A stretch of 64,000 bases of DNA from Diplonema papillatum. Lineage: Eukaryota; Euglenozoa; Diplonemea; Diplonemida; Diplonemidae. The notes beneath the pieces were generated by a model. That model ran no database searches. It saw nothing but the letters and a program-made list of their open reading frames with translations, and was not told the DNA's origin. Both the position numbers and the translations under genes were made by a program. This document shows positions 6,434-62,011 of the stretch, one piece after another (the first letter of the stretch is position 1; every line of letters starts with the position of its first letter). The DNA lies in NCBI GenBank assembly GCA_030068145.1, contig JAPJBO010000671.1, forward strand, positions 1-64,000, given 5' to 3'.

Positions 6434-6643
6434 CCTGGGGGGCGCGCGTTGTGTGTGTGTGCGTGGTTCTTTGTGAGTGCGTGCGGGTGTGTGCGTGTGT
6501 TCTTTTTTTTTCGTGCGTGTGTGCGGGGTAGTAGGTGGTGGGGGTAGGTGGTGTGTGAGTTGTTAGCGCGCGTGTGCGAGCTAGGGGTGAACACAAAGTG
6601 CGGGGCTTGCGTCCTGCACTGTGCGCCTCTCTAGCTCGCTTCC

Positions 6644-6671
6644 TTTTTTTTTTTTTTTTTTTTTTTTTTTT
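6644..6671 (-). repeat. Poly-A tail of element B (28 A on minus strand)
   Basis: A run of 28 T on the plus strand lies about 80 bases past the stop codon of element B ORF2, where a retrotransposon 3' tail is expected. It directly abuts the 5' leader of element A. Confidence 0.8.
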
Positions 6672-6752
6672 GTCGGCCGCCCAATGTCCACTCTCCTTAC
6701 TGTCTTTCTCCTTTCCGCTAGTCGCCTTTTTCACTGTCAAATCAAGCATGCA

Positions 6753-9700
6753 CTAATCGAGATATCTCAAAACGAGGGATGACCAACGAGCCGCGAGCGG
6801 GTCGTCACATAGCGCTTTCACGCGCCTGGCCACGTGGCGGATTGTGGGCCTTCGTCTTGTCGCAAAGTCTTCGAGGAGTCGCCTCAGATGTGGTCGGTCT
6901 TGTGGGTATGCTTCCATGATATCAGACACATCATTGTGCGTCGCGTCGTCTGCCAGCAGTACATGCTGGGCGGTTGCCATCTCCGCGCACCGTATACAGT
7001 TGACCTTTGTGCCTCGAGGCATTACCGCACGCCGCACGATGGACTGCAGGAGGTCTGCCGCCCCGGGTATGGTCTCGAGGGAGCCGAGGGTGCTTCCCTT
7101 TGTCGTCTTTGCCGATGCCAGCTCTCGGATACTCCTCATGGCCGTCTTCGTGCGGCGGTGACGCCAGACGCGCCGCACGAAACGGATGGGGCTCTCCAGC
7201 ATCGGGAACTCCTCAGCCACGAGACAGCACACAGACTTCACCCCGTTTAAAAGGTGGAGCAACTCCATGCTTAGACCCGGTCCTCTGTCCCGGAGTGCCT
7301 GGGTCGCCGCCTCGTCCGCCCGGTTGATGAAGGCGTTGTCGGCGTGCCCCTTACTCCATCGAAGGCACTGCGCGTACTCGCCTACTGCGTTGGCGACGGG
7401 GTCGCCGGGCTCTCCGCGGCGGACACGCAAGATTGCGGCCTCGCTGTCGCTGTACCACGTGACACGGTCGGGTGCGACTTCACGCCGCCGTAATGTCGTC
7501 GCTAACAGGTAGATGGCGGCCAACTCGGTCTCCGTACTCGATGTCACCGTGCCCCTCACCATGCAGCCGAACGACGTCGTGCCAATTGACACCCCGGCGG
7601 ACCCGCGTGATTCGTCTTCCAGGAACCCCCCGTCGGTCGCCACCACCATTTCCCGCGGCTCCGAGAATTCATCCGTCCCCAGTAGCGCGTCTAACCGTTC
7701 CAAAACGTCCTCTCCCTCGACCGTCGGGTGTGGCGGCCTTCGCCGGAATCCTTCGACCGGCAGTGCGCTTTTCGCCTCGTCAGGTCGATGAGCCAGTACC
7801 GCCCGCGTTCGTTGTAGCGCCGCATATGTCTCGACATTTTGGCAGGCAAAGCCGTCTTTGCACCACGCGAAATCCTTTATCCCCCTGCTGTGGCGATGCT
7901 TGGGAAAGAGACTCGCGTGGGCTGCAACGAGCTTCGGCGCCCGCGGGTCGAAGCAAGACGAAAGACAGTGCATCGATACGATGGGGAGCACGTGGCTGCT
8001 GAAAAAGGCGCATTTTCGCCTTGTGGAGCGGTGCACGTGGGAGTTTGTGAAGTCGACGAGGCGCGCCAGCCTTTCCATGCACTTGGCGTCATTGTCGCAC
8101 CCACTCAGTCGTCCGCCCGCATGGATACACACGCCCAGCAGTCTTGCCCGGTTGGTGGTTTCACGGATGGGATCCGAGCTCCATGCGAAGGAAGACCTCG
8201 CCAGTACAACCGTCTTTTCCTCAGCCAACTCCAGGTCTTTCGATGTCGCCCACTTCTTTAGGGCCCTGTACGTTCCTTGGAGTCTTGATCTCGTCGTACG
8301 TGCAACCAGGTCATCGACGTATGCCCGTGTTTCATCCTCGGGGGGAGGCTCGCAGGTATACAAGATGTACAGCAGCACGCTGAGGGGTGATCCCTGGAGA
8401 ACGCCGCGTTTCATGCCAACCGGCGGGGTGAAACCGTCATAGTGCACAATCGACACTTCCTGATCCTCGATGACCCTCGCTATCGTCCTCGCCCACTCGG
8501 GACCAAGCAACCTCTCGACCGTCCGAACCAGCTTTTCATGCGGTATCGTGTCAAATGCCGCGAGAACGTCGACTAGCAGCAGCAGGTGTTCATCGTCGGG
8601 CTCCGTGCCTGAACCCGATTCCAGCCATTCCTTCGCATAAAGCACTACCTGTGCTGCCCCGCTCCGGCTGCCGCACCCGAACTGGAATTTGTACCTGAGG
8701 ACCACCGATTGCACGAGCGGCTTCATCTTCTGGTACAGCGTCGAGTGCAAAAGCTTTGCGAATAGGGGCATTATGGCGATCGGGCGATACCCCCTCGGCT
8801 CCGACCTTCGCAGCGCCTTTCCCTTCCAAAACAAGAAAATCCACGACAACCGCTGGCGCGCCGGGACGCCTTCACGAACCCATCTATTCAGCTCATCCGT
8901 TGTTGATTGTACGGCTTCTTCAGACATAACTCTTAAAAACTTCGGTGAAAAATCTGCCGTTCTCGCGGTGGGCCGGATGGCTTCGATTGCCGTCCTGAGG
9001 TCTTCGGTTGTCAATGCGACTGCTTCGGTGTCCGGGGGTATGATTATCGGGGGACTGGGCGTGTCGGATTTATACTTGTTTCGGAGGAAAGCTGTAAAGG
9101 CGTCGGGATTTTCCAGCAACGGAGGCTGGTACGGAGTCGTCAGGTTGGGCGGCCTCTGCTTCATCGCGACCACGTCCAACTTCTTCCGTACAGATCGTAT
9201 CTCGGCGTTCAACAACTTCTTTTGCTCCGGGCCGGCCGCGCTTCGGAGAAGGATCCGTCGGTAGAGAGCGTCCTGCAGCCTCGCCACCTTCGTGCTTCTG
9301 GGTCGCGGTGGGGGGCTTGCACCCGTTTCATCCAGTGTGTTCAGCAAATCGGAAAAGGCCGTCTGGTCGAGGACTTGTCGCTTCGATGGGTAGATCATGG
9401 CCGGAGGCTTCTTCAGGAATTTGTCGAATCGGAGGATTAGTACGGCGTGATCGCTTCCACCGGTGAACCGTATTCTGTCCAAGCTCCAGCGCGATCTTCT
9501 CGGTACAAACGCCCTATCCAGGGATGACGCGGCGTTGGACCTCGCGAACGTGGTTTGCGACCGAACCAGCTCCTGCAGATTTTCCCTCCGTACTCGAATC
9601 TCTACTTGGGGGGTTGTCCGCGGATTAAAATCCCCGACAACTGCAACATCAGTCACACAGTCCCGAGCTCGCGACGCTATCCAGTCTCCAAGTCGATCCG

Positions 9701-10013
9701 TCAGGGCATCACGTTTGTGGCACGGAACGTATACACTTACCACTCGCAATGTCTCGCCAGCCACCTGCAGATCCGCGCTGCACGCCCCGTACCCCGAATA
9801 GCACTGTGATAGTGTAATCAGGGATTGCTTCTTTATCAGTATCGCCGTTCGGGCCAGGGGGCGCCCGTTCGCGTAGGGGCACGTACCCACTACGACGACA
9901 CTCCATCCAGCACGCTTCGCGTATTCGCGGAAATTTGTGGGCTCACGACCAATCTCGTTCACCGCCAGGATATCGCCGGCGGGTAGGCGAGCGAAAAATC
10001 TCTCAAGACACAT
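6753..10013 (-). CDS. Element B ORF2: AP-like endonuclease, reverse transcriptase, RNase H
   Basis: A single 1086-codon frame. The N-terminal endonuclease/exonuclease/phosphatase fold shows AVNEIG (catalytic Glu), VGDFN near residue 126, SLDRAFV, and GGSDHAVL near 188. The reverse transcriptase follows with VDVLAAFDTI, GVLQGSPLS and AYVDDL (near 565). The RNase H has VVATDGG (about 790), TETELAA (about 826), YSDSEA (about 854) and WSKGHADN. A C-terminal CIRCAEMATAQHV resembles the terminal zinc motif of I-type elements. The listed first codon is ATG, but the frame continues upstream (reading LVLLSCNASSKM), which looks like the start of the nuclease fold, so the protein probably begins some residues earlier. 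No stops or frameshifts interrupt it. Confidence 0.9.
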   Translation of the reverse strand: MCLERFFARLPAGDILAVNEIGREPTNFREYAKRAGWSVVVVGTCPYANGRPLARTAILIKKQSLITLSQCYSGYGACSADLQVAGETLRVVSVYVPCHKRDALTDRLGDWIASRARDCVTDVAVVGDFNPRTTPQVEIRVRRENLQELVRSQTTFARSNAASSLDRAFVPRRSRWSLDRIRFTGGSDHAVLILRFDKFLKKPPAMIYPSKRQVLDQTAFSDLLNTLDETGASPPPRPRSTKVARLQDALYRRILLRSAAGPEQKKLLNAEIRSVRKKLDVVAMKQRPPNLTTPYQPPLLENPDAFTAFLRNKYKSDTPSPPIIIPPDTEAVALTTEDLRTAIEAIRPTARTADFSPKFLRVMSEEAVQSTTDELNRWVREGVPARQRLSWIFLFWKGKALRRSEPRGYRPIAIMPLFAKLLHSTLYQKMKPLVQSVVLRYKFQFGCGSRSGAAQVVLYAKEWLESGSGTEPDDEHLLLLVDVLAAFDTIPHEKLVRTVERLLGPEWARTIARVIEDQEVSIVHYDGFTPPVGMKRGVLQGSPLSVLLYILYTCEPPPEDETRAYVDDLVARTTRSRLQGTYRALKKWATSKDLELAEEKTVVLARSSFAWSSDPIRETTNRARLLGVCIHAGGRLSGCDNDAKCMERLARLVDFTNSHVHRSTRRKCAFFSSHVLPIVSMHCLSSCFDPRAPKLVAAHASLFPKHRHSRGIKDFAWCKDGFACQNVETYAALQRTRAVLAHRPDEAKSALPVEGFRRRPPHPTVEGEDVLERLDALLGTDEFSEPREMVVATDGGFLEDESRGSAGVSIGTTSFGCMVRGTVTSSTETELAAIYLLATTLRRREVAPDRVTWYSDSEAAILRVRRGEPGDPVANAVGEYAQCLRWSKGHADNAFINRADEAATQALRDRGPGLSMELLHLLNGVKSVCCLVAEEFPMLESPIRFVRRVWRHRRTKTAMRSIRELASAKTTKGSTLGSLETIPGAADLLQSIVRRAVMPRGTKVNCIRCAEMATAQHVLLADDATHNDVSDIMEAYPQDRPHLRRLLEDFATRRRPTIRHVARRVKALCDDPLAARWSSLVLRYLD

Positions 10014-10252
10014 CTTCGAGGAGGCATTGCACGACAGTAGGACTAGGCTTCTTTCGGAAGGGAGAAAAAGGCGGACGTTAGTGGACGGTATGATCAGAGG
10101 AGGCCGTGGACGTAAGGGACCGGTTGTTTCGGTTGGTTGTTGTGACAGGGAGGGATTGACTGATGGGCTGGGTGATATTTCGAGGGAGGAATTGACTGAT
10201 AAGGTTGACCTGACGTTGTTGGGGTTGTTTGTTTCCGTCTTATAGACCGTGG

Positions 10253-11368
10253 CTAATAGGAGCCCATCGGGTCGTCCCCGGGGCGCGGGTTTTCAAGCGG
10301 TGACGTCCCCCCGCCGCCTTCTCCAACCCGCTCCCCAGGCTTGCTCTTTGCCGGTGGCGACACCGACATCTCGCCCTCTCGTTCTAGACCCCTCTTCGCT
10401 CCAACTGCGTCCTCTTTCTCCGCCCTTGCCTTTGCGCCTGTCTTCTCCTTCTCCCCTTTTCCCTTCTTGCCGGCTCCTCGCCCTTTCGGCGCGCCTCCCT
10501 TCCCTTTTTCGGTTACCTGCACTCCCTGTGGCCTGCATTCCTGGTCATTTCCGCTCTTCGACCGTTCGTCCGCTGCCTCGTCATCGGATGCGCTCGTCTC
10601 TCCGCGACTCGCTGCTCGGGCGTACGTTCTGGGGGTCCGCGGGGCGCCCGTCTCTCCCTCCACCAAAACGCCCAGTTCCCCGAAGCGTAGCTCCCTGGCT
10701 CCAATCTTGATCTGCAGACTCTGCAGTAGGGCCTCCTCTTCCTCCTCCAGCCCTTTCACCGCAAAGGTCGTCGTTGCCCGCGTTAGACCGTACGCCGGAA
10801 TCAGTTCGAATCCGCTTGTCACCCCAGCGTGGTTCAGGGCTAACTGGACTTCGTAGTCTGCCAGCGTCCTACTGAGTCCCACCACCCCGAATTCTCCCTT
10901 AAGCCTCTCTCTGTACGCCTCCTTGTCCCTCGCCGCCTGCTCTTTCGATTTAACGAAAACCCCATCCCGCTTTACCGCCATCCCTGCCGCGTCCAAACGC
11001 TCTGCGAAGGCGCCAATCTTCCCCTCTGACTCCCTGTCCGCGAATACTCGATACCCGGTGGCCGAGTGGCGCATAATCGCTGCCCGCATGCCTACCTTCT
11101 CCATGGCCTCGATGATGTCCTTGGGGGGGTTCGAAAACGGGTCCTCTCGCGCGGTTCGTCTCTGAAAAGCCTCCAATTCGATGCCGGGAGGGGGCGTGAT
11201 GATCCATGCCGCGGGGTTGATTGAGAAACGATGTTCAGCGGCCACTCTTGCAAGCAGGTCCAGGTCGCACCCGTCCTCCATCTCCAGCAGCTTGACCACG
11301 TTTCCTTTGTAGTAACCACCGGCGCTACGCACCTTCGACACTCCGGCCACCTTTCCAATGCTCTCCAT
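10253..11368 (-). CDS. Element B ORF1: nucleic-acid-binding-like protein, family not recognised
   Basis: The frame ends at TAG 10253 and is open to 12238. The first ATG downstream of the A18 run is 11368, giving 371 residues. I do not recognise a known domain. The first two thirds are an ordinary globular-looking mix with acidic and hydrophobic stretches. The last third is Lys/Gly/Glu-rich and low in complexity (GKGKGEKEKTG-like), suited to RNA binding. Position before ORF2 on the same strand marks it as ORF1 of element B. If translation starts upstream instead, the A18 run is read as six lysines. A function in element RNA packaging is inferred from position only. Confidence 0.6.
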   Translation of the reverse strand: MESIGKVAGVSKVRSAGGYYKGNVVKLLEMEDGCDLDLLARVAAEHRFSINPAAWIITPPPGIELEAFQRRTAREDPFSNPPKDIIEAMEKVGMRAAIMRHSATGYRVFADRESEGKIGAFAERLDAAGMAVKRDGVFVKSKEQAARDKEAYRERLKGEFGVVGLSRTLADYEVQLALNHAGVTSGFELIPAYGLTRATTTFAVKGLEEEEEALLQSLQIKIGARELRFGELGVLVEGETGAPRTPRTYARAASRGETSASDDEAADERSKSGNDQECRPQGVQVTEKGKGGAPKGRGAGKKGKGEKEKTGAKARAEKEDAVGAKRGLEREGEMSVSPPAKSKPGERVGEGGGGTSPLENPRPGDDPMGSY

Positions 11369-19866: not shown

Positions 19867-20762
19867 TCAGCGTATGAAAGTGTCAAGAAAGAGGTACCGG
19901 GAGACGCTGCATGAGGAAACTGGTGATGCTGTCAGCACGTGCCACGCTTGCACACAGGATGCGAGGGCCAGAAATGCGCTTTGATTGGTTGCAGACTCAA
20001 AGGCGATATACGACACAAAGACAGCCGGGAAGCCAAAAGCAAGGAGATAATCGCCATGGCATCTTGTGTACTCGAAGAAGTCTCGTGTCACTTTCAGGCC
20101 TTTCGTGTGGCAGCCGAGAGCAAACGAAAAGGTGCCCAACGTGTAGGAGAGACTATCCCATAGCAGAGGGCTGTAGCGCACCAGAAACTGGCCAAACGGC
20201 TGAAAGATTTCCGGCAAAACCAGGAAGAGCACATGGAAGATATACGAAACGAGTGTGCCGAACACAGATAAAGCGATGGAATACATTATCAAGTACAGTG
20301 ATGCGCCCAGGGGAATCGAAGGTATTTTTCGCTCCTGAACAAGTGCGGTCGCAGTCAGGTATGCTGCCCATAGCTTGGTGCACGAGTGGAAAACAATGAG
20401 CTGGAGCCACCAGTCAAACCCAAAAAGGCACAGTAGCAACGGGAGAACACCAAAGAATGAAGCCCTGAGCACAGGCCCTGACAACCTGGCCGAAAAAAGA
20501 GCCTCAAAAAACTGATCGAATCGTAGTGCATCGCTCACACCGTGCCGGAGCGCTTCAATCCAAGCACATTTATCGGAGAGACCATGTTCGATCATAGCTT
20601 TCCCCACCTGCTTTAAAGGTTTGTTTCTTGGTAAGGCTAGAATTCATTGGTCCTGATCCATATTTCAGTCAGATCGAACAGGCTATCACAGAAGCGGTAC
20701 AAGCGTGTTGTGACCGAAGTAGAAAACCGTCGTAAAGAATCCACCTAACAAAAAAAGGCGAG
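19867..20762 (-). CDS. EI24-like multi-pass membrane protein (5' end incomplete)
   Basis: The main exon runs from about 20606 to TGA 19867. It is preceded by a splice-acceptor-like ctttaaagcag, so the GTG at 20607 is not a start; an in-frame ATG lies at 20595. The product has four or five strongly hydrophobic segments. The C-terminal block FSFALGCHTKGLKVTRDFF followed by YLLAFGFPAVFVSYIAFES matches the pattern of EI24 (FNKGIE ... YYFGFGLPLAFLTA). EI24/EPG-4 is an ER membrane protein with a role in autophagy in animals. A likely upstream exon at 20762 to about 20690 reads RLFLLGGFFTTVFYFGHNTL, resembling the first EI24 membrane segment, but the join between the two was not resolved. The EI24 assignment rests on remembered family pattern only. 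Confidence 0.5.
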
Positions 20763-21393: not shown

Positions 21394-24300
21394 TCATTCA
21401 ACAACATCCAGCCAAGGATGACCCAAACTTTGACGAGGCGAAGGCCGTTTGGATGCATCAAACTCGAGCATTGGCCCAATGAAGTCCACCAGCACCTCAG
21501 CCTCATCGGCTGTCATGACAGTGTACTTCGCAACAATGAACTGAGGAAACGTGTAGCGCTGGAGCTGCTGAAAACGAAAGGTGCCCGAAGACGAAAAGTA
21601 TCGGCTGGTATACTTCCCGGATAGAGTCTGCAAGTGCTCGATGGGAAACGGTTCGAGGATCTGCTGGAAGAGCATCCAGTGGTCTGTGTGTATGTTTGGT
21701 TTCTTTGCTTGAGAGTGGATAACCTCGTTGAAGCAAAACAATCCTGTCCCGAACACAGACACACCAGCTGGTTCAACTCCCCAAAACCGTAAAAGGTACC
21801 TTTCCACCGTCGGCCGTTGGCCGTTTCTGACTACTCCACTTGAATTCTAGTCCAACAGAACCCTACAAAAGAAATGGCACGTACAAATGTCGATGTCAAC
21901 TTCGCTCTGTCGTTTTGGATCAAACAGGAAGTCGCCTGTCAACAGCTCGAATATGACACAGGCCAGCGACCATGTGTCGATGCGCGGAGTCAAAGCTTGA
22001 ACGCCAAGCAGAACTTCGGGTGAACGATACTCGCGGGTTTGCAATGTGTCGACGGGATACGTCTTCTTCAGCCAGCGTGCAGCGCCAAAGTCAGAAACCT
22101 TTACTTTATAACATCTGTTGAGCGCTTCCTCCAAGGACTCACCTTCGTGGCGTGTGTAGGCTCCCTTCAAAACACGCTTACTCTCATCGCAATCTCTTTC
22201 AAGTTCCTCAGGATCCCTACAACCGAGAGCACTTGCGATCGCCCGTTGCACACTTTCGGTCTGGATTTCCAGCAAAATGTTCTCAGGCTTCAAGTCCGTG
22301 TGGATTATCTCCATCTCTTCGTCGAGGAACTGCAGTCTGTGCATTAGGAGTTTTCGTATTACGGTTTGGCAGCTGTGTCCTACTTTGGATTCGGTGTCGC
22401 TTATTGGTGTGTGCGCAAATAAAAGATCTTGGCAGCATGTGCGACACGCGCAAAACAACCGAGAGAGATAGACGAGGCAGGGACCATCTCCGAGGAGTTT
22501 CCTCACAACGACTCGTACTTCCAGATGGACGTAGGTCCTTCCGTCAGAGACGCGGTGCGGCCGCGGCCTCGACTCCGTGGATGGCATTGACCCAGCCGGT
22601 GGTGTTCTGGCGGCAAGCGAGCCCGCCTCGCGTGGGAGCGTCGTCGTGATGTGTCTTCTTGACAACCGCACGGCCTGGTATCTTGATGGGAACTGCAGCT
22701 TCCATTCAAAGAACATACGCATGAAGGATATTCTTCGTGATAACGCGAACGATGTTCGCATGGATCCCATCGAAGTTGTGCCCAGTGATGAGTTTCAGTA
22801 AGTCCGGTCCAAGCAACTCCATCACCATGCTCATATGAACACCATTGGGTCCCCGAATCTCAAAGTAGTCGAGAAGCCGTGTGAGATACCCGCCATTCTC
22901 GGTATGCGACAACCTGTGGATTTGTTTTGGTTGCGCAACTTGAGTAAGCGTGCTCCGAACTCAGATGTTGCATTCCTTCGAGTGATTCGCGTTTGAACAA
23001 AAAAAGGCAGTGATATGGTCAAAGGTTCCGGTAGAGGTGAATTAGGCACTTAACTAAAGACGTCTACCTCTACGAACTAAGACGAAAGAAGATATTCATG
23101 TAAACACCACATACATCAGTTTCTCGGTCATCTTCTGCAGAATATTAACCTCGTAAGCGGCTGCTTTTCTGAACTCTGGAGTGGCCTTACATATCTTCAA
23201 TGCTGCCAATGATGGGAATGGGCCTTCAGTGGGTGACCCCCGCCGAGTCCTGTCATTTACAAGCCAAACTGTTGAAAACTGACCCCACCCGAGCTTGCAC
23301 AACACTTCATATCGGTTGTTGAAGACTTCACCGAGGGCCACACGGTGGTAACCCCCCACGCGATATTCAGACTCGCCTTCCTGCTCATCGCACGTGTGCC
23401 ACAGATGCGGCTTCGGGGACGGGGTTGGCGTTCGTGACAGTGTGACTGTTTTCTTACGCGTGTCGTCCAAAGGTTCGCTAGTGTCACTGTTGGTAGGAAT
23501 GGATGCTTTGACAGCTGTCGCAGGAGTCAGCAAACTGGTAGGACGGGACCGCTCCGACGCGAGTTCCACGCTGTCATCTTGTTCGACGACAGAGCTCGGG
23601 GTGCTTGCAGAGGTGATTTCACTCATCAAATACTGGGCACCTGAGGGCATCCCGTTCTCGAGCGAGTCATCTTCTGGTTCTCCAATGAAATCCGGCGCGT
23701 GCTTTGCGTCAAAGGAAAGAGCCGCTATTTGTGAAGCCGGTCGCTTTGGGGTGTTGATGTTGAGATTGGATGGCACATGCTCATCAAGGTCGTCTGTGAC
23801 ATACGTTCCCTGTGCATCTGCTCCGGAAGTCGAAGTAACCGTCATCGAGTGCATCACGTTCGATTCAACATCACCAACACTCTGTTCCACTCTGTTGTTC
23901 GCCACCCAGAAATCTTCTCTCTGCCCGCTTGCCTTCACCGTTCTCGTAGCTTGCACTGTGCCGGCAATATACACTCTCTTGGTCCACCAACTCAACGCAA
24001 GTAATGCACCCCATCCTGCAAACACGACCGCCAATGCAATCCAGGCACTGCGCACGTGAAAAATGCGAGGCCCTGTTACGAAGCTTGTCAAAGCGGCCCA
24101 TATGACCATGCTATATCCAAATGTTATCCACGGGTTCACTGACGGTGTGGTACTGGGCCCGAGCCGGGTGAAGATGGTGGAAGGTGACCACTTACTCCTC
24201 CGTGACTGTGCTGCTAACAGGGCATGAGACGCGATGAAGACGACGGGAATCATGATATCGGCTGCATGTGTGCCTTCAGAAAGAAGAGCAACCGCGATGC

Positions 24301-25927
24301 ACACAAACTTTAGTCCGCGGTCAGCTACTGTGTGAATCGGAGAGAAGAATGGTGCTGGACCGAGCCAAAAGGACTCAGGCCCTGGTTGGTAGGTCGTAGC
24401 TCTCTCCGAGGCGGTTGGACTCATTGCAGTAGGGTTCAGGTTCAGGTTCAGGTTCAGGCTCAGAGGGTTTCCCCCTGTTATGTTAACAGCTCGAGGGGAA
24501 GACGATGAGGTTGCGGTGGCCATGCGCACGTCGATCGCAGCGGGGCTGTATTCAGCTGTGGGTGTTTGTAAGCTAACGGAACCACAAGTTGCACTGTGCC
24601 CCGCGCTAGGCGGATGTGGATTCCTGTCATCGTCGTGAACCTCAAAAACTCGGACAGACGGTGGCACTTCAGTCCCATCGATTTCAGGAAGCCCCTCACG
24701 CTGGCCAGGCTGCACTCTTGCTCCCCCAACCTTCCCTGTCTGAGGGACAAAGTCGCTCCTCCTTCGCGCAATCGCTTGGCACACTTCGGACAATGCTGTG
24801 AATACCACTGTCGCCGCGAAAGCGCCCTGCAGTACCCAGAGGCACACATACACTTCCCCCACATGTCCCTGCGACCAGCATTGAAGCTCACTGCCACGGT
24901 CTAAATGCCTCAAAAAGACCAAATGGCTCACCTCTTCTCCGGAGCGATCAATCTGTGCTTGCGCCTCTAACGGTAGGCGGAAGCAGAGAAACCCCTTTGC
25001 CACAGCAGTGCAGGACGTGACAAACAATAAGTTCATGCCGCATGTCGCAGTGCATGCAAGATTCGCGTACAATTTCTCCCCACGCATGCTGAGGAAGCTG
25101 CAGATACATGTTGTTGCCAGCCACGCGACCGTCAATGTTGCAACCAGTGACAGGATGAGGAAATGTGCAGCTGTATGGTCGAACTCGAGGTAAAGATAGC
25201 GGAATGGATTCTTCTCGAAGCCTTCGTCAGAGTTCTCACTGGAGCTCGCTGTAAACGCCACAAAGCATAACGAGGAAATCTGGACGGCCTCCAGCAGAAT
25301 AGAAGCCAGTGTCAAATAGTATGCAAACGACCGTTTTTCGTTTTCAGGCAACCGTGGGAGCTTCAAAGAACGCGCTTTGAGCGCGGTCGTGGCTAAGGGT
25401 GGGCACACGGTGAGAGAGAAGAGTACGATCGTTAGTACAAGGGAACTTCTCTCTCTCTGTCTTTTCGAACCACCAGCCACGATACTGATACCGATGATGG
25501 GCAACGCATATACTGCGAGTTGCATGAGGAGGACGATGGGTAGAGTTTTGTACTTTCGTGCATGCCACGATATGCGCGCCTCGGTGCCACTGTCGGACAC
25601 AATCAGCTGCATGAATCTATTCTGGACATACTGGGAGAAGCATAGGCAAGCCACCAAGCACGCCACTCGCTCGTTTTCTGCCCATGGCAAGACACCCCTC
25701 AGCCAAGGAGCTTTCGTTTCTGCCTTCCTGTCTTCCTCGTCGGAGTCATGCTCGGTGACACCGCCCGGCAGATGGTTTGCCACTCTCTTCTTCTGCAAGC
25801 GCCGCGCAGGCCACCTCGCGGTGCTTCCTGTCTGTACACTAATGCTGGCAATCTTCTGTGCCTTCAGTTCTTGGTCTCAAAGTGATTGGTTTACCTCCCC
25901 CTGTAAGTGTTTATAAATGAGACGCAT
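21394..25927 (-). CDS. Multi-pass membrane protein fused to an SRPK-type protein kinase, five exons
   Basis: The modelled exons are 25927-25895, 25792-23115, 22913-22719, 22336-21885 and 21683-21394. Donors are gtaaac, gtatgt, gtatgt and gtacgt, and all phases agree, giving 1215 residues. Residues ~95-350 hold about six hydrophobic membrane segments. After a Ser/Pro-rich stretch, three more lie at ~507-613. A long disordered linker leads to the kinase from ~839. The kinase has GWGQFSTVWL (the SRPK glycine loop), ALK877, Glu892, IIHTDLKPEN (Asp983, Asn988), SDFG (Asp1051) and TREYRSPEVLLG. It ends at HPWLDVVE. A ~60-residue insert follows KPENILL. SRPKs phosphorylate Arg/Ser-rich splicing factors and are normally soluble. 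Here membrane segments and kinase N-lobe are in one uninterrupted exon, so the fusion is not an assembly of separate frames. Localisation is unknown. Confidence 0.85.
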
Positions 25928-28900
25928 AACTGCACAGACAGTGGTAGCACCTCCAGGTGAAAAGGGTTGACCTGGGTTTACTAATTTTACAAACAGTACA
26001 GCTCTCACTGCAGACAAGTCGACAGCGTCAAAAAGAATATTTGTAGGCGTTCGAGCGGCTGGTTTACAAAAATTGGTAGTTTGAGATGCTTGCGCGCTCT
26101 GGCCGTGCTGATCAGCAGGGGTGAGACGAGAAGCGTAGATGCCGAGCAGGGTCAAAGCTTTTTTTTCCGACTCGAATATCCAAATTGTATCCACCCCTGC
26201 TGTGTAGTGCTACTGCATGCTGGTGATACCACTACGCAGTGCATACGTACTAGCAGAGGAGGATGCTACGTAGCTATACAGGCCGGGTTTGCGGGTTTGC
26301 GAGTTTCAGCCACAATATGCGGGCTTGCGGCGTTTGCCGGTAAGGGTACGCGGGTTTGCGGAATCGGGTATGCGGGTTAGGGTATGCAGGTTTGCGGGTT
26401 CGGGTATGCGGGTAAGCGGGTTCGGGTATGCGGTATTTGCGGGTTAGGGTTTGCGGGTTCGGGTATACGGGGTTTGCGGGTTAGGGTTGGCGGGTTCGGG
26501 TATGCGGGTTTGCAGGTTCGGGTTGGAGTCGGCACAAGACCCGGAGAAATTATCTTCCACCCCCGTACTTTTGTTCTTCGCTTACACCACCGTGTGTTGT
26601 TTTCTCACTCAGGATTTTTTGACCTGTTGTGTTTGTGTGACTTATCGTGTAGGGGTAGACCCGCATGACCTCACGTCCGTTCAACACGTGGTTCGGTAGT
26701 TACAGCACTTGGGATCCCTTCGGTTCTTTGTCGGGCAGCATCGTCGAGCATTTCCTTTCAAGCTGGCGCTTATGCAAAAAATTTCCACCCCCCGACATCG
26801 GTTTTATACCCCCCGATTAATACTCTATATCCCCGGATTCTCTTTACCCCCCGTTTTTCGGGGGTTGAAAGTACGTGTCGGGGGTAAAAAGTAATTCACG
26901 GGGGGCAGTGGCGGCTGGCTAATTCCCGGGAGTGGGTTGATCAGTCCCACCGGGGGGTATTTTCTCTTGAGTGCCTGTGAGTTCGTTTTGGTTCCAGGAT
27001 CGTTTTTTGGGGGCCCCCATAAACCCGCAAACCCGCTGCTGCATGGCGAGCTTTCAACCACAAGAAAAAACGAGATTATGGTCTCAACTGGTAGAGAACG
27101 GTGGAACAAGAGGCAAAGGAACGTGTGGGGATCGAGGGGAAAGAAAGGAAGAATGAAAAAAACAGGAGGCGTCTGGTATCCTTCAGCAGACAATACTTGG
27201 TGGTGTTTGTTCGTATATTTCTCCTATTTCCTTTGCAACAATCCTTTCCATTTTCGTGTTTTTCGGGTGGCGGATCACAAGAACCACACAATGGCCAGCA
27301 GTGTTGCCATGCAAGGGTGTGCCGATACCACCAACGCTTCGTTTGCGCACAACTTGCTTGTTTTCGATGTTTGTGCAGTTAGTGGTTGCTTGGAAGAATG
27401 CAGGACTGAAGTTCATACTAGAATGCGTGGGAAAAAAAGTGAACGGGGGTAAAGGGTGCAGATGCTGTCGGCTACAAAACATGCAGAATGCTTCAAAAGG
27501 ACGAACCAAGTGGTGGATCTGTCTCGTACCTAGCATAAAACACGACAGAATGCAGGATTCCGCCAGCACTAACTTCACTGACTTCTGGGCTTTCCTTGTT
27601 GCATGGTTAAGTTGGCAGTTTTGCAGCAATTTGCTTAGTATGCAAAGCTGCGAGGCTTCGGTAAATCTGTTGCGGGAAAGCACGGAGCAACTGAAATCCA
27701 CACAGAAAGGACCTTGAGGCGTGTTCACCATAAGGTATGACTATTCCCATGCTTAGAATCTAAGGAGGCGGAGATGCGTGGCAACACTATGCCCTCTCAC
27801 TGTGGTTCGGTTTTGACATACTGGGGGCGGAACCAACACTCAGAACCGGAGTGGCGTAAGTCTGGAGGAAAAGAACGGGCAACAAAAAATGAGCTGCGCT
27901 GAGTGGCGGGTGAAAAGGTATACTCATGAAGCGATCGTTCGAAGGACTAACGACTGTGCCATACAGGGTATCAAAGAGGTTGTCGGCCATCGCTAGCCCA
28001 ACCGCAATCATACAGGGACATCACGGTTTATCAATGTGTACCGGTATACGAACTCTGGTTGGCAGGAACAGGAGTTGTGGCATCAGGTCGATTGCATGAT
28101 GTTTTTGATCCGGATCTTGAATAAATGAGTTGTGATGACTGCCTCAAAAGTATTAAGGTTATTAGGCGTATCCGTTTGCAGTTCGGCAGCACCCAAATCG
28201 AGAAACAGAGACGGCTCTAGCAAACTGAGGATCGGGGACGGAAGATACTGCAGAAACAAAGACGATAGGTTCCAGAATAGAGAGGGACAGCGGGCTGGGT
28301 ACCGTCTGTAGGACTTCGTTCTTGGAGAATGAAAAACACAAGGTTTCGCTAACACGTGCTTCGGTGGTCTCTTGGGGAAGCCACTCTTAGTTTTAAAACA
28401 ACAAGCAAAGAAGGAGTTTTGGTCAAGAAGAATTTTGGTTTCTCTAGGTATCATTGCTTGCCACCAGTCGTTCTCAGCCATCTTCTTTCCTGCTGCATCC
28501 TGATTAACCCGGGTAGAAAACCGCGTGTTCTACATTTGGGTAAAAGCTTAATCTCACTGATAGAGAAGTTAGCAAAGGAGCGCAGAAAGTACGTTGCACC
28601 GGGATGCAATTGTCGAGAGAGTGGTTGCAAGACTTTGTCGAATCGTGCACTTAATTTTGTATCAAACTCGTTTTCTTTTGATTCGTATGCACTCGCTTAT
28701 GTCACCGCGAAATACCAGCGACATATCCATAATTATACTTTAGTCGTTTACCCCCGGCCCCTCTCCTTTGGGGCCGAAAATGGCGAAGGGGGGTAAATGA
28801 CAACGATATCGACAGATAAGAAAAAGAGAAGCATGGATACGTGAGGGGCTTTTTGCTTGTGAAAAGTCCCCAGAAAGTCACTGCTTTAAAAACAAAACGG

Positions 28901-33047: not shown

Positions 33048-35552
33048 TCAAAGAGGCATGGGAACGAGAGACGGTAGGGCCTGCATCGATTCGACCAGTT
33101 GCGGCGGTTGCGGGTATTTCTGAAAAGGCAACTGGGTTTTTCTGGAGACTTCCTGCAGGGCTTCGACAATCCGGTTACAGTCAGCTGGGGCATAACCCAA
33201 GGATGAGAGGGCTTGGATAGCCAATGCCTTGGGTGTCGTCATCAGAACGGGAATGCTTGGGTGCTCAAGAGCAGGCTGTTTTTGCGCCGTGCACAGGATC
33301 GTCTCGCGAAGGTTCAAAAGCCATTCTTGATTTGACATTTCAACCAGCGGAGGGGGTGCCTCTTCGAGAATGTCAGAGCTGCGCGATTGTTCTTCGTCAC
33401 TCATCGATGCTGCCGAAGAAGCTGCTTTGCGGCCCGGAGACGATACTGTCAGTGACTCCTTTAGCGAACTCAGACTTGCGCTCAGGCTACTGAGCTGCTC
33501 GTAATTCATACAACGCATCGTCGAGGCCTTGTCCACGTCAGCGTCGTGTCCCTGCGAGGGTTCGGACACGTGCTCAAAAGTTGATGTAGGTTGTTCTTCC
33601 TCAGCCTCGTTCAACGTTTTTAGCAAGCTGCGCATAGTTTCATCTTCTTCGCAGAGGTTGACAACACGGTAGTCGATAGTGTTGGAGCGCTGGTTTAAAG
33701 GAGTGTTCCGCTGGCTACCCACAGCACGGTCCACACTTTGTGCACCGTCATATGCGCTGCCATCGGCCACATAGTGGCACGTGGTTTTATCGGGTGACCG
33801 CGTCTGTGTCAGAAGCGGGGAAGGTGTGAGACCCATCATCGTAGATCTCGTTTTCGGAGTAATCATTGCAGCCCGGGCTGCTGGGGGTGAGCTGAGTGGG
33901 GGTTTCTGCGTGAGTGGGTCCATGTGCCGGTGCAGGTTCCGTTTATGCGGCGACGTCACGGCGAAGTTCTGTTTCATTTTCGCGACAAAAAGATGCTCGG
34001 CGATGGCTGCCGGGTTTCCGCTGTCGTCACTTTCGAAGTCTTCCAAAAGTGATGGGAGCGCGCTCTTTTCAGGTGACGGGTAGTGGTCTTTCTTTTGCAG
34101 TTCTGTCACTTTCTCTTGTACGGTGCCGTTTTGAATCATGCTGAGTGCGTTTTCGGTCGGGTTGACGGTGAAAACGGGTGCGACAAGGCCTGGCATCGGT
34201 GGGTGGCTAGCCGGTGGGGCGGTGGTAAGGTTGTTGAACGAAGAGTGATTCGAGGCATATGTGTACGATTGTTGCTGATAAGACTGCTCGAAGTTTTGAT
34301 GAGTCGGTGGAGGGCAACGTGTCTTGTTTGCCTGGTCCGCAAACCACAGCTTTTCCTTGCGAGACGAGGGGTACAGGAGTACATAGCGCTTGTCTGTGAT
34401 GTTCGCACGGTCTTTCGCTTGTGCGATCAAGGCTTCTTTCCTGTCCGCGAATTCGATGATGGCTGACCCTGATGGTTTTCCGTCCTTGCCAGTGATGAAC
34501 AAGACGTTCTCCTCTTTTAGCTTCAATGGCGAGAAAAACTGAATGACGGTTTCACTGGAGGAGGTGTATGGCATTCCAGTAATCTTCACGAACTGACCCA
34601 CGTCGTCGTGGTCATGCACGTAGCGACACTTATTCCCAAGGGAGCAAAACCCCTTCAGAAAATACACACACATGCCGCCAGGGGTGCCCGGTTCGAATTG
34701 GTACACTGGCTGGCCTTCGGCAGTGCACTGTCTTTCCTTCGCCATACCTGGGGAAGGCTGGCCTTTTCCCGCCGGAAACGCTGATCGTTCATTCCAGAGC
34801 AATGCGTTAGCTTGCCTCTGCCCCACAGAAACCCCTTGCATCAGTGATGCGTCGTGTGAGGCCGGGTTTGTGTTGTCAGGCCTTTTACACTGCAAGCCTT
34901 GTGCACAGCCGGCGGCGACTGCGTCCGCAGCATCGCGCATGCGGGTGCTGTTCTTTTTGATGTTGATGTTTTGAATGTGCATTTCCAAGCGAGCCGACTC
35001 GGTGACCTCCATGCGGTAGATCTTGTTCCGGGCAAGCCTCTCCTTAGTCAGGAGGACGCGGATCTCTTCGACAGGAGACAACATGCCTGGTGTGCCCTGC
35101 TGACCACGGATGTGGATGTCAGCAATATCAACCACACCGTTTGAATGCAACTGCATATGAACGTCACCTGGCGACTGCCACGAGTCAGAGCTCAATTGAT
35201 GAGAAACACCAAGCGTGTTTCTACAGTTATGCTGAACCTCTTGCAGCACGGTTCTCTGCTGTGGGATCGACATACACTTGCTGTTGTACTGAACAGGTGT
35301 CGAGCGCAAGCTATCATGCGTCGCCGGCATGTCACTGAAACTCGCGTGTGAGGCGCCAGCAACGATCTGGCTGTACCACTCGCTCGATGGGGGAACACCC
35401 CTCATCTGCTGCTGTTGCTGTTGCTGCTGCTGCTGCTGCTGCTCGAGGGCCTTCAGGAGGAAGTCCAGACGCTGTTGATTCTGCTGCTGCTGCTGAAATT
35501 GCATCATCTTTTGCTCTATGAGGAGCTGCTGCAGTACATCCGGGTGATACAT
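33048..35552 (-). CDS. CCCH zinc-finger/RRM RNA-binding protein with poly-Gln N terminus
   Basis: A single exon of 834 codons starts at ATG 35552 and ends at TGA 33048. The N terminus is Gln-rich, with a 12-Gln run at residues 38-49. A CCCH finger CVYFLKGFCSLGNKCRYVH (C-x7-C-x5-C-x3-H, residues 295-313) is followed at once by an RRM at about 320-396. RNP-like blocks there are FVKITGMPY and GSAIIEF, similar to hnRNP F/H-type RRMs. The rest is Ser/Pro-rich and disordered. A helical block near the C terminus (ALAIQALSSLGYAPADCNRI) looks UBA-like. The product is probably an RNA-binding regulator; the target is unknown. CAG-type codon runs underlie the poly-Gln and may vary in length between isolates. 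Confidence 0.85.
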   Translation of the reverse strand: MYHPDVLQQLLIEQKMMQFQQQQQNQQRLDFLLKALEQQQQQQQQQQQQMRGVPPSSEWYSQIVAGASHASFSDMPATHDSLRSTPVQYNSKCMSIPQQRTVLQEVQHNCRNTLGVSHQLSSDSWQSPGDVHMQLHSNGVVDIADIHIRGQQGTPGMLSPVEEIRVLLTKERLARNKIYRMEVTESARLEMHIQNINIKKNSTRMRDAADAVAAGCAQGLQCKRPDNTNPASHDASLMQGVSVGQRQANALLWNERSAFPAGKGQPSPGMAKERQCTAEGQPVYQFEPGTPGGMCVYFLKGFCSLGNKCRYVHDHDDVGQFVKITGMPYTSSSETVIQFFSPLKLKEENVLFITGKDGKPSGSAIIEFADRKEALIAQAKDRANITDKRYVLLYPSSRKEKLWFADQANKTRCPPPTHQNFEQSYQQQSYTYASNHSSFNNLTTAPPASHPPMPGLVAPVFTVNPTENALSMIQNGTVQEKVTELQKKDHYPSPEKSALPSLLEDFESDDSGNPAAIAEHLFVAKMKQNFAVTSPHKRNLHRHMDPLTQKPPLSSPPAARAAMITPKTRSTMMGLTPSPLLTQTRSPDKTTCHYVADGSAYDGAQSVDRAVGSQRNTPLNQRSNTIDYRVVNLCEEDETMRSLLKTLNEAEEEQPTSTFEHVSEPSQGHDADVDKASTMRCMNYEQLSSLSASLSSLKESLTVSSPGRKAASSAASMSDEEQSRSSDILEEAPPPLVEMSNQEWLLNLRETILCTAQKQPALEHPSIPVLMTTPKALAIQALSSLGYAPADCNRIVEALQEVSRKTQLPFQKYPQPPQLVESMQALPSLVPMPL

Positions 35553-37626
35553 GGTCCTTTTTTATGTTGTGTTGCGGGAGCGCGCGCGGACACCAGTGAA
35601 AGCGCGGAAGTTGGAGTATGATGCTATTCTTTGTTTTCGGGTTGATTGGGGTGTTGCGAGTACCTAAGTTGTTCCTTGGTTTGTCGGCGACAAGGTAATA
35701 CTTGGATAGACATTTGGGAGGGTCTGAAACGATTCGAACATTTTTAGTTGGATTGTTGACGATGGCGGCAGCACAGACGACCAAACGCAGGTGTTTGCAA
35801 GATCCCCGAAACATCGAGGTTCGGGCGACTGAGGCGGAGCTTGGTACTGAGTGGGCTCACAAGTGTCAACAGTCCACCCCTCAGATAACTCTGTGTCTGA
35901 AAACCCTGGGTAGAACTCTTCGTTCCCCACGCCTTGTCAAGAGACAGGTATCACCGTGTCACACAGGGAACACGCTACAGCTTGAAATTGACACGAATAG
36001 GTGTCCCAATTACAGAGGGGAGCTAGACACGCTGGTCTCGTTCTCAGTCACTAACAGGGGGGTCGTGAGACAGGTTGGGTTTATCCCCAGTCGGCAAGCA
36101 GCTGGTGCATGGTTAACACAACTTGTTTTTCGCGTACTTGTTCCTCGTACGGTGGGTGCATCGGAAAAACTAGCTTTAAATTCCGCTCCTTCGAGGGGGT
36201 CGCTCGGAGCCGTTGCTCCCTCTCGTCCCGCGCATTTAACGTACGTTTAATGCCGCTTCGCCCGAACAGATTCTGCGGTTACGGTCCTTAGCTGGCCTGC
36301 TAAAGCTGTGGGACAGAGCCGACGGCGCAGCCGCTGCAGCAGGGGCGGCCTGTGCGGGACTGACTAAGCGACGGAGGCAGGTGCGCAACCGTGGCTTCGT
36401 CCAACGGTGGGCGCATCGGAAAAACTACTGAAACAAATGCTGTAAGTTGGAACAGAACACGAATTACACGAGCCTCTGAAAGGGTCGGGGTGGGTGAGCC
36501 AAGAATCGGACAAAAAGAAGACTGCAGTGGACGAGCTGTGCAGATGAAAGGTTCGCTGCATGGGGGACATGACCAATACAGCAATATATAATTTAAGTTG
36601 ATGAGATCAAAATCTTCTATGGTTTGCCGACAAGCAACGAGAAAACAACCAACGGAAAAGGAATCAAAAGAAACCCAAGAGAACGAAAGAACAAGATTCT
36701 GTCAGAATATGCTGTCATCAGTGTGACAACGCGATACCGACGATAGAGAGTGTCGTATCCTGCCGGTTTGCGAACACAGCGGAAGCTGACTCACAGCTCT
36801 CTTGCAACAAAAGTATCAACCTGCACGAAATCACCACGCTTCGGTTGTTACAAAGCTTAATGATCGCGTATTAGCTGAAAAGAGAAGGAAGCTGGAACCG
36901 GATGATGCGGGTATTGAGTTTTAGCCCTTGAATGCTTTGAAGGCCACAAGATCTGGAACCGGAACTGCTCCCCTCGGCTACCTTGTTGCACTAAAGCTGT
37001 ATTGCTACTAAAGGAACTGGAAAAGAAAAAGAGCGCGAAACGGCAAAGAATGTTCGTTCAGGCAAGTTGTGCCTGGCAAACAGACTGAGGTGTGCTCCAT
37101 TCCTCAGCTGATACTTATGCTGTTGCCTGTATTTTGACTGCTCTCGTGAAAAGCGTGAAAAGAAGGAAAGATTGGCGTGATAATGGGAGGGTTGCCGATA
37201 CGAACCCTATCTGGAGACTTTCGTGTCCGGCCTACATAAGAGATGCCGCAACCCACGGATAACCGCACAGATGTCGAAAGCATACGCGCCCTGCTTCAGC
37301 TTACGCAAGGAAGGCGCCCTGTTGGGTCTTGTCGATCTCGTTCTCAATTTCGCACGTCTGGCAACTGTTGTACGATTTACCGCAGCAGGATTTGCGTAGG
37401 AACGGGCAGTATTTCCCGAGGCTCGGCGTCTTGTCACCCATGCTTTATGTACCATCTTTACCCCTTGTGGACGAATTACAGTGTAACTCGTCGAAAACAG
37501 TTTTTTCAACAACCAGGATTTCCTGGTGTTCGTATAGGTCTATGAATACACTAAGGCCCTGTCATGGGTTTTCAACCCCCACTCTCCGCTACAAAGCGTA
37601 AACTCGGCTCCCTGTAAGGGATTGTT
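35553..37626. other. Intergenic; no recognised gene
   Basis: Upstream of the CCCH/RRM gene. A divergent plus-strand frame at 35702-36250 has no recognisable domain. A short motif (ggtgg(g/c)gcatcggaaaaact) is repeated near 36150 and 36404. The rest holds nothing I can name. Confidence 0.35.
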
Positions 37627-37652: not shown

Positions 37653-39178
37653 TGCGACTCTGGTTAGGAACCTTGTACGTTTAATTATTTTCAGTGTATT
37701 TTCGTACTCCTGAGGCGTGCTCGGGGGTTTCCCCCCCCGGAAACAGGTTGTTGGCGACTTCTGACCCCAAGGCTGGTGAGGGGGACGCCGAGAAACACGA
37801 AAGAAGGGCTAAAAGTGGTGAAAATGGGGCATTTTGGCCAGTCTGGCAGGGTGGCTAGATGCGGCTGATTCCCAATGTGATCCTTGGAACACCCGCGGAA
37901 CACCTTCGAGCGTCCCCGGAACACCTCGGAGTGTCCCCCGGAACACCTCGGAGTGTCCCCGGAACACCTCGGAGCGTCCCCGGAACACCCCGGAGTGTCC
38001 CCGGAACACCCCGGAGCGTCCCCGGAACACCTCGGAGCGTCCCCGGAACACCTCGGAGCGTCCCCGGAACACCCCGGAGTGTCCCCGGAACACCTCGGAG
38101 CGTCCCCGGAACACCTCGGAGCGTCCCCGGAACACCTCGGAGCGTCCCCGGAACACCCCGGAGTGTCCCCGGAACACCTCGGAGCGTCCCCGGAACACCT
38201 CGGAGCGTCCCCGGAACACCTCGGAGCGTCCCCGGAACACCTCGGAGCGTCCCCGGAACACCTCGGAGCGTCCCCGGAACACCTCGGAGCGTCCCCGGAA
38301 CACCCCGGAGTGTCCCCGGAACACCCCGGAGTGTCCCCGGAACACCTCGGAGTGTCCCCGGAACACCTCGGAGTGTCCCCGGAACACCTCGGAGCGTAAC
38401 AACAAGCACGCGTACAGGATGGGTATTATGGAAGGAATCATGGAAGAAGTAGGGATCATGAAAGAAGCAGGCGTGGAGATATTTACTATTACTATTGATG
38501 TTAGGTCCAATGACGATGTGCTCTTGCTTCTCTCCCTTTTCTTGGCTGTATACGCACAACAGAAATCCGAGGTGTTCCGGGGACGCTCCGAGGTGTTCCG
38601 GGACAGGCCGCACCGGGCCTACCCGGCAGCCGAGGCAACATAGACCGCACCGGGTCTACCCGGCAGCCGAAGCAAGATAGGCCCACCGGGCGGCAGGGGA
38701 AGGTGTTCCGGGGACACTCCGAGGTGTTCCGGGGACGCTCCGAGGTGTTCCGGGGACGCTCCGAGGTGTTCTGGGGACACTCCGAGGTGTTCTGGGGACA
38801 CTCCGAGGTGTTCCGGGGACGCTCCGAGGTGTTCTGGGGACACTCCGAGGTATTCTGGGGACACTCCGAGGTGTTCCGGGGACGTTTCAAGCTGTTCCGG
38901 GGACGCTCCGAGGTGTTGCGGGGGTGTTCCAAGGATCGCATTGGGAATCAGCCACATCTAGCCACACTGCCAGACTGGCCAAAACGCCCCATTTTCACCA
39001 CTTTTAGCCCTTCTTTCGTGTTTCTCGGCGTCCCCCTCACCAGCCTTGGCATCAGAAGTCGCCAAAAACCTGTTTCCGGGGTGGAAAACACCCGAGCACG
39101 CCTCAGGAGTACGAAAAAACACTGAAAATAATTAAACGTACAGAAGACCCCTAGTTAAATGGCTGGAGTCGCACCCCC
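37653..39178. mobile_element. Foldback element with ~21-bp tandem repeats in both inverted arms
   Basis: The two ends are inverted copies: tgcgactc ... gtacgtttaattattttcag at 37653-37692 and its complement at about 39125-39173. The ~200 unique bases inside each end also match (for example the acgccgagaaacacgaaag block). Inside these lie arrays of the 21-base unit ggaacacctcggagcgtcccc. About 24 copies run one way (37880-38398) and about 17 the other way (38566-38930). A 165-base unique loop (38400-38565) separates the arms. Units alternate cctcgg/ccccgg and agcgt/agtgt. Long frames on both strands here are products of the stop-free repeat. No transposase is present. Confidence 0.85.
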
Positions 39179-55306: not shown

Positions 55307-61990
<6,684 letters not shown>

Positions 61991-62011
61991 GATTCTGACT
62001 CTGTTACGCAC

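What the first reader, a model, noticed from the sequence alone, without database searches (positions are those of the whole stretch)
21394..25927. SRPK-type kinase fused to a multi-pass membrane domain
SRPKs are soluble cytoplasmic/nuclear kinases that phosphorylate SR splicing factors. Here about nine hydrophobic segments and the kinase N-lobe (GWGQFSTVWL, ALK) lie in one stop-free exon. Three more exons with matching phases complete a kinase with all catalytic residues. A membrane-tethered SRPK would put SR-protein phosphorylation, or a new substrate, at a membrane. The Ser/Pro-rich loops and linker look like regulatory targets.
Basis: partly seen in the sequence, partly recalled or inferred. 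Interest (0 to 1): 0.85.

Follow-up and report, generated by a model that had tools for sequence, protein, structure and literature searches.

The report
Membrane-embedded SRPK-type kinase of euglenozoans
A marine single-celled flagellate carries a kinase, related to the soluble enzymes that act on RNA splicing factors, built onto a large membrane-spanning domain, and several relatives have the same combination, which suggests that this kinase line was re-used at a membrane.

Summary
Minus-strand gene 21394-25927 encodes about ten membrane segments, a disordered linker and a complete SRPK-type kinase. The fusion is not a mis-join: twelve further proteins have membrane segments ahead of a related kinase, among them nine EukProt transcript-derived ones, a second D. 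papillatum gene and, more weakly, Perkinsela. Membrane-domain homology exceeds all shuffled controls for a core of nine, one of them prokinetoplastid; for P0120 and P0127 it does not. With three EF-hand-type forms the kinases form a lineage apart from ordinary SRPKs (100/98). Two acidic docking residues of SRPK1 are replaced in the membrane forms, while the same genome holds SRPK sequence that keeps them, so phosphorylation of SR proteins by the usual docking route is doubtful. Best reading: an old euglenozoan membrane kinase derived from the SRPK line, kinase in the cytosol, substrate unknown. New variant of a known kind.

The parts
21394..25927 (-).
   Evidence: joins, translation; identical to P0001 from residue 72
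25895..25927 (-). Proposed first coding exon (ATG 25927); unverified
   Evidence: GT border; absent from the deposited protein; favour a start upstream of 25612
25610..25612 (-). Start Met of the deposited 1144-aa protein; probably too far downstream
23115..25792 (-). Exon 2: membrane domain, linker and kinase N-lobe in one stop-free frame
   Evidence: match to residues 1-834 of P0001
23990..25552 (-). Polytopic membrane domain, 10 hydrophobic segments (model residues 92-612)
   Evidence: homologous in relatives
25610..25669 (-). Possible extra N-terminal helix (residues 53-72); weakly hydrophobic here
   Evidence: Alignment with relatives, helix 46-66 of the P0002 model; hydropathy at most 1.14
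24338..24781 (-). Long loop between segments 6 and 7, predicted cytosolic
23381..23983 (-). Low-complexity linker between membrane domain and kinase, probably disordered
   Evidence: (pLDDT below 50, in a poor model)
23115..23323 (-). Kinase N-lobe in exon 2 (FNNRYEV, GWGQFSTVWL, ALK)
22719..22913 (-). Exon 3: kinase
21885..22336 (-). Exon 4: HTDLKPEN, short spacer insert, DFGAARW, QTREYRSPE, TGDFLFDP
21394..21683 (-). Exon 5: helix G to the end of the kinase; the E571 equivalent is Gln (21661-21663); the D564 equivalent, Tyr, is split by the 21885/21683 junction

Best explanation
A membrane-integrated protein kinase that descends from the SRPK line and is old in Euglenozoa. About ten (perhaps eleven) N-terminal helices anchor it; the kinase hangs on a disordered linker in the cytosol. 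Shown: sequence anatomy, intact catalytic residues, recurrence in relatives. Inferred: topology, localisation, activity. It is predicted to phosphorylate Ser/Thr proteins at or near that membrane. It probably does not capture substrates by the standard SRPK docking of an arginine-rich motif, because the acidic docking groove is remodelled (inferred from sequence); soluble SRPK sequence with that groove exists in the same genome and would serve SR proteins. The membrane domain may also sense or carry something and so control the kinase (inferred, untested).
For: Kinase: SRPK1, SRPK2 and Sky1 are the best PDB matches; the fold of relative P0002 matches the same enzymes first (ranks 1-26). Beta-3 Lys, HTD Asp and DLG Asp kept in 13 of 13 membrane forms; R515 and R518 equivalents in 13 of 13. 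Fusion: 13 proteins with membrane segments ahead of this kinase. Membrane-domain homology above the best of 6134 local-shuffle controls for nine linked proteins. Tree of 42: membrane forms plus three EF-hand-type forms on one side, 100/98; one origin of the membrane forms not rejected, p-AU 0.432. Topology: with the kinase side set as inside, inside loops have 14.8 K+R per 100 residues and outside loops 9.1, over seven proteins; the loop between segments 5 and 6, then outside, has two Cys in 5 of 7. Docking: D564 is D or E in 25 of 26 soluble forms and in 0 of 13 membrane forms; E571 is E in 25 of 26 and in 0 of 12 scorable membrane forms. D. papillatum L013 keeps both in RDEDHLALVIELLG.
Against: D548 of the docking groove is kept in 13 of 13. 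The membrane parts of P0120 (best 30.4 bits) and P0127 (20.4) stay under the best control (32.7); P0119 and P0207 exceed it only against each other. The best tree does not show one origin: two of the membrane forms fall with the three EF-hand-type forms (weak, 80/17). Topology labels were set by the hypothesis. The docking residue of P0207 is unsafe (unspliced end) and those of P0120 and P0127 less sure. L013 is a 264-codon piece, not a whole gene, with Glu at the D548 place. No localisation, RNA or activity data. The membrane domain matched no Pfam family and its fold could not be searched apart from the kinase.
Confidence: 0.72

Rival explanations
1. A true SR-protein kinase tethered to a membrane (for instance ER or nuclear envelope) that phosphorylates RS-domain proteins there.
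For: Kinase aligns with SRPK1 over its length; R515, R518 and D548 equivalents kept in 13 of 13; SRPK1 phosphorylates the RS domain of the lamin B receptor (title and abstract of PMC4841541 in a search listing; that this is a membrane protein is recalled).
Against: D564 and E571 equivalents lost in the scorable membrane forms; SRPK sequence that keeps both is present in the genome.
Confidence: 0.15
2. Two products from one gene: a soluble kinase from transcripts that start after the membrane part by spliced-leader addition, the membrane form being minor.
For: Spliced-leader addition is shared by all Euglenozoa (passage of PMC10161547).
Against: The deposited protein and nine EukProt relatives carry both parts in one ORF; the kinase N-lobe lies in the membrane exon.
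Confidence: 0.06
3. Gene-prediction artefact: a membrane-protein gene and a kinase gene wrongly joined.
For: None found beyond the lack of RNA data of this species here.
Against: Membrane segments and N-lobe share one stop-free exon; the same order in proteins of other species and in the second D. papillatum protein P0115.
Confidence: 0.01

Closest known systems
SRPK1/SRPK2/Sky1 (soluble SR-protein kinases, CMGC group)
   Same: Kinase domain over its length (3beg E 9e-59), GGYH motif before it, catalytic residues, QTR.YR, D548
   Different: Membrane domain; 62 residues between HTDLKPEN and DFG against 187 and 271 in two ordinary SRPKs; D564 to Tyr, E571 to Gln; DLGNACW replaced by DFGAARW
P0115, second D. 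papillatum gene (contig C99, locus L009), named SRPK in NCBI
   Same: Membrane segments (eight in a 1075-codon frame) and a kinase of the same lineage
   Different: 44% identical kinase; longer loops and linker; 1419 aa
EF-hand-type kinases P0124, P0196, P0213 and D. papillatum L010
   Same: Same kinase lineage (P0124, P0196, P0213; L010 60% identical to P0196)
   Different: No membrane segments at threshold 1.6. The EF-hand label rests on the precomputed PF13405 of P0213 (name recalled); a Pfam scan of P0124 gave kinase families only
Receptor-type kinases of other protists
   Same: Membrane domain ahead of a kinase
   Different: Recalled, not compared here; the trypanosomatid kinome paper reports few kinases with transmembrane segments (passages of PMC1266030)

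Membership tests
SRPK (SR-protein kinase) | Kinase domain closest to SRPK1, SRPK2 and Sky1 | tested here: met
   The best 13 PDB sequences are these, E 9e-59 to 2.6e-57; fold matches 1-26 likewise, with the model of relative P0002
SRPK (SR-protein kinase) | Intact catalytic residues | tested here: met
   Lys, HTD Asp and DLG Asp in 13 of 13 membrane forms
SRPK (SR-protein kinase) | Acidic docking groove (D548, D564, E571 of SRPK1) | tested here: not met
   D548 kept 13 of 13; D564 acidic in 0 of 13; E571 Glu in 0 of 12 scorable. Residues named in passages of PMC11809128
SRPK (SR-protein kinase) | Long spacer insert splitting the kinase | tested here: not met
   62 residues between HTDLKPEN and DFG; 56-62 in four membrane forms, 187 and 271 in two ordinary SRPKs. 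That the long spacer defines the family is recalled
SRPK (SR-protein kinase) | Soluble, without a membrane domain | tested here: not met
   model of P0002. Sequence prediction only
SRPK (SR-protein kinase) | Groups inside the ordinary SRPK clade | tested here: not met
   Other side of a branch, 100/98 against 99/97 for 24 ordinary SRPKs; no outgroup, midpoint root
SRPK (SR-protein kinase) | Phosphorylates RS dipeptides of SR proteins | not testable with these tools
   Needs an enzyme assay
Membrane SRPK-type lineage of Euglenozoa (named here) | Homologous membrane domain ahead of the kinase | tested here: met
   Nine of 13 proteins, this one included, linked by matches above every control; four of 13 not linked to them

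The most novel reading that the evidence does not exclude
A polytopic receptor or transceptor kinase: the ten-helix domain senses or carries a ligand across a membrane and directly controls an SRPK-derived kinase, a signalling class that arose before diplonemids and kinetoplastids split and was lost in trypanosomatids (their SRPKs were not examined here).
Probability: 0.25. Interest if true: 0.82.

Novelty: new variant of a known kind. Interest (0 to 1): 0.62.

Why it matters
SRPKs are known to me as soluble enzymes of cytoplasm and nucleus (recalled). A conserved lineage in which the kinase is built into a polytopic membrane protein, with a remodelled docking groove, would show how a splicing kinase was turned to work at a membrane. 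Diplonemids are among the most abundant marine microeukaryotes (abstract of PMC10161547 in the listing), and D. papillatum is called genetically tractable (abstract of PMC8611851, same listing), so localisation and loss of function can be tested. Searches for a membrane SRPK or for diplonemid kinases (10 of 608 papers listed; 1 of 1; 12 of 19) listed no paper that names it by title or abstract start; they cover open-licence PMC papers only and I did not read those papers for it.

Tried and rejected
Profile search with the membrane parts of seven proteins returned only P0001; the six other members of the alignment were not returned, so it says nothing about absence of kinase-free relatives. Search of the own genome with the membrane part alone did not complete, so whether it occurs without a kinase in D. 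papillatum is open. First structure job (P0001, 7 rows) was poor, mean pLDDT 41.6; the second (P0002, 13 rows) 76.4. The 50 listed PDB fold matches were all kinases, and nearly all named ones in the viral list of 50 too; the membrane fold stays unidentified. PDB profile search with the membrane part: one match at E 2, noise. Pfam on the seven membrane parts: three families, one member each, best E 0.061. Internal two-fold repeat by hhalign: none. RS-rich linker: not supported. Alveolate or algal source: rejected. Rfam: no match at gathering score. Script one search stopped half way on a motif not found; its first lines are used, the rest was redone.

Full report
What is there. On the minus strand, 21394-25927 reads as five exons with GT..AG borders and kept phase, 1215 aa. 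Residues 92-612 hold ten hydrophobic segments (threshold 1.3); a low-complexity stretch follows, then a protein kinase. Pfam (E up to 0.01) gives kinase families only: Pkinase E 2e-32 and PK_Tyr_Ser-Thr. Against the PDB the kinase part matches SRPK1 over its length (E 9e-59), ahead of CLK and DYRK.

Organism and deposited model. The own genome, 271 Mb in 2910 contigs, fits the ~280 Mb of PMC10161547, whose passages also say that most introns are GT-AG and that spliced leaders are added by trans-splicing. The stretch before 25612 is only weakly hydrophobic (at most 1.14).

Is the fusion real? One search (114 proteins) gave six EukProt relatives, P0002-P0007, 42-53% identical over the kinase; all six have membrane segments ahead of it. 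A search from P0007's kinase (best 120 of 533 listed) added P0115 (second D. papillatum gene), P0116, P0119, P0120 (PhM-4), P0127 (Perkinsela) and P0207. Of the 218 proteins in hand, 212 had a recognisable P-loop; 12 of these have four or more segments (hydropathy 1.6) ahead of it, two have two (P0127 and P0114), five have one, 193 none. P0114 is a fungal hit at E 1.6e-7 with another precomputed Pfam domain; I left it out of the 13. The set was gathered from members of the lineage, so these are not frequencies in nature. Species names of P0002-P0004, P0116, P0119 and P0207 were not shown; that they are diplonemids is inference. P0007 and P0120 bear the PhM-4 tag; that culture, a prokinetoplastid, was fed a bodonid and its data were cleaned of prey (passages of PMC7052976 and PMC7859406). 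They group with Perkinsela (100/93), which argues against contamination.

Membrane domain. With seven proteins the best pair reaches 91.7 bits and the best of 2099 local-shuffle controls 31.2; reversed sequences reach 23.5. With all 13, 21 of 78 pairs exceed the best of 6134 controls (32.7). The window protein, P0002-P0007, P0115 and P0116 are linked this way; P0119 and P0207 only with each other; P0120 and P0127 not. Among 12 proteins (P0127 left out), the commonest residues include a Gln in segment 3 (9 of 11), D, R and K of a DR..K motif in segment 7 (9 of 12 each) and G and W in segment 10 (11 of 11, 11 of 12). No Pfam, PDB or internal-repeat match explains the domain. With the kinase side set as inside, K+R is 14.8 per 100 in inside loops and 9.1 in outside loops over seven proteins, and 5 of 7 have two Cys in the outside loop between segments 5 and 6; the window protein has one there, P0116 none. 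The labels follow from the hypothesis, so this is support, not proof. AlphaFold on P0002 with 13 rows has mean pLDDT 76.4 and eleven long helices before the kinase, the first of low confidence.

Kinase. A 42-row tree (398 columns) puts the 13 membrane forms and three EF-hand-type forms together (100/98), apart from 24 other SRPKs (99/97); two long rows, P0099 and P0106, lie outside. Holding the membrane forms as one clade costs 2.35 log units (p-AU 0.432): one origin is not rejected and not shown. Catalytic residues are intact in 13 of 13. In the docking groove named for SRPK1 (passages of PMC11809128), D564 is D or E in 25 of 26 soluble forms (P0099 and P0106 included) and is Tyr 7, Phe 2, Leu 2, Trp 1, Cys 1 in the 13 membrane forms; E571 is Glu in 25 of 26 and Gln 9, Arg, His, Asn in the 12 scorable; D548 is kept in 13 of 13; K615 (number recalled) is kept in 3 of 13. 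P0207 runs into an unspliced end here, so its residue is unsafe; without it the D564 count is 0 of 12. The alignment of P0120 and P0127 at this place is less sure. The three EF-hand-type forms also lack D564 (0 of 3) and have lost D548 (0 of 3), with Glu at E571 in one.

Paralogues. The own-genome search with P0001 (44 matches) and ten fetched loci give: the second membrane gene, L009 = P0115 (99.7% over 373 residues), with a 1075-codon frame holding eight segments; an EF-hand-type gene without segments, L010; and pieces of ordinary SRPK on two contigs, L012 (N-lobe) and L013 (264-codon piece with RDEDHLALVIELLG and Glu at the D548 place). One genome match on L013's contig has a stop inside, so L013 may be split by an intron or broken. 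Loci L011 and L014-L018, divergent SRPK-like, were not pursued.

Linker. Over 10 of the 13 linkers [ST]P occurs 87 times against 49.9 in shuffles (four of ten at 5 of 500 shuffles or fewer), RS/SR 24 against 32.0; this protein's own linker shows no enrichment (3 against 2.6).

Literature. Trypanosomatids are reported to have two SRPKs and few kinases with transmembrane segments (passages of PMC1266030). The last common diplonemid ancestor is reported to have had expanded kinase families (passage of PMC10161547). Searches for a membrane SRPK and for diplonemid kinases listed nothing on it, within lists of 10 of 608, 1 of 1 and 12 of 19 papers.

Verdict. Architecture shown; kinship of the kinase with the SRPK line shown; cytosolic kinase and altered docking inferred; substrate and role of the membrane domain unknown. 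By the docking, spacer and membrane tests it is not filed as an SR-protein kinase, though it may well work by the same catalysis.

Noticed in passing
window 3-6752 and 6756-10292 (-): Two long frames with reverse-transcriptase domains (RVT_1), probably of retroelements.
   Followed up: no
window 19870-20643 (-): 258-codon hydrophobic frame just downstream of the kinase gene, no Pfam match at E 0.01.
   Followed up: partly
window 37940-38355 (-): Two tRNA-Pro calls by ARAGORN lie inside a 21-base tandem repeat (37896-38397) and look like artefacts.
   Followed up: partly
window 33051-35561, 43307-44146, 48858-49910, 56378-62020 (-): Frames with CCCH zinc-finger-like (below Pfam's cut-off), DUF5654, proteasome RPN6 and DnaJ matches, on the minus strand like the kinase gene.
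   Followed up: no
window 26344-26526: Degenerate tandem repeats (such as CGGGTATGCGGGTT on the + strand) just upstream of the gene.
   Followed up: no
L010 (contig C282): D. papillatum gene of the same kinase lineage with another N-terminal part in place of the membrane domain; Leu replaces the Arg of QTR.YR (QTLEYRA).
   Followed up: partly
L013 (contig C2564): Ordinary SRPK piece beside a 1901-codon open frame on a 14-kb contig; one genome match there has a stop inside.
   Followed up: no
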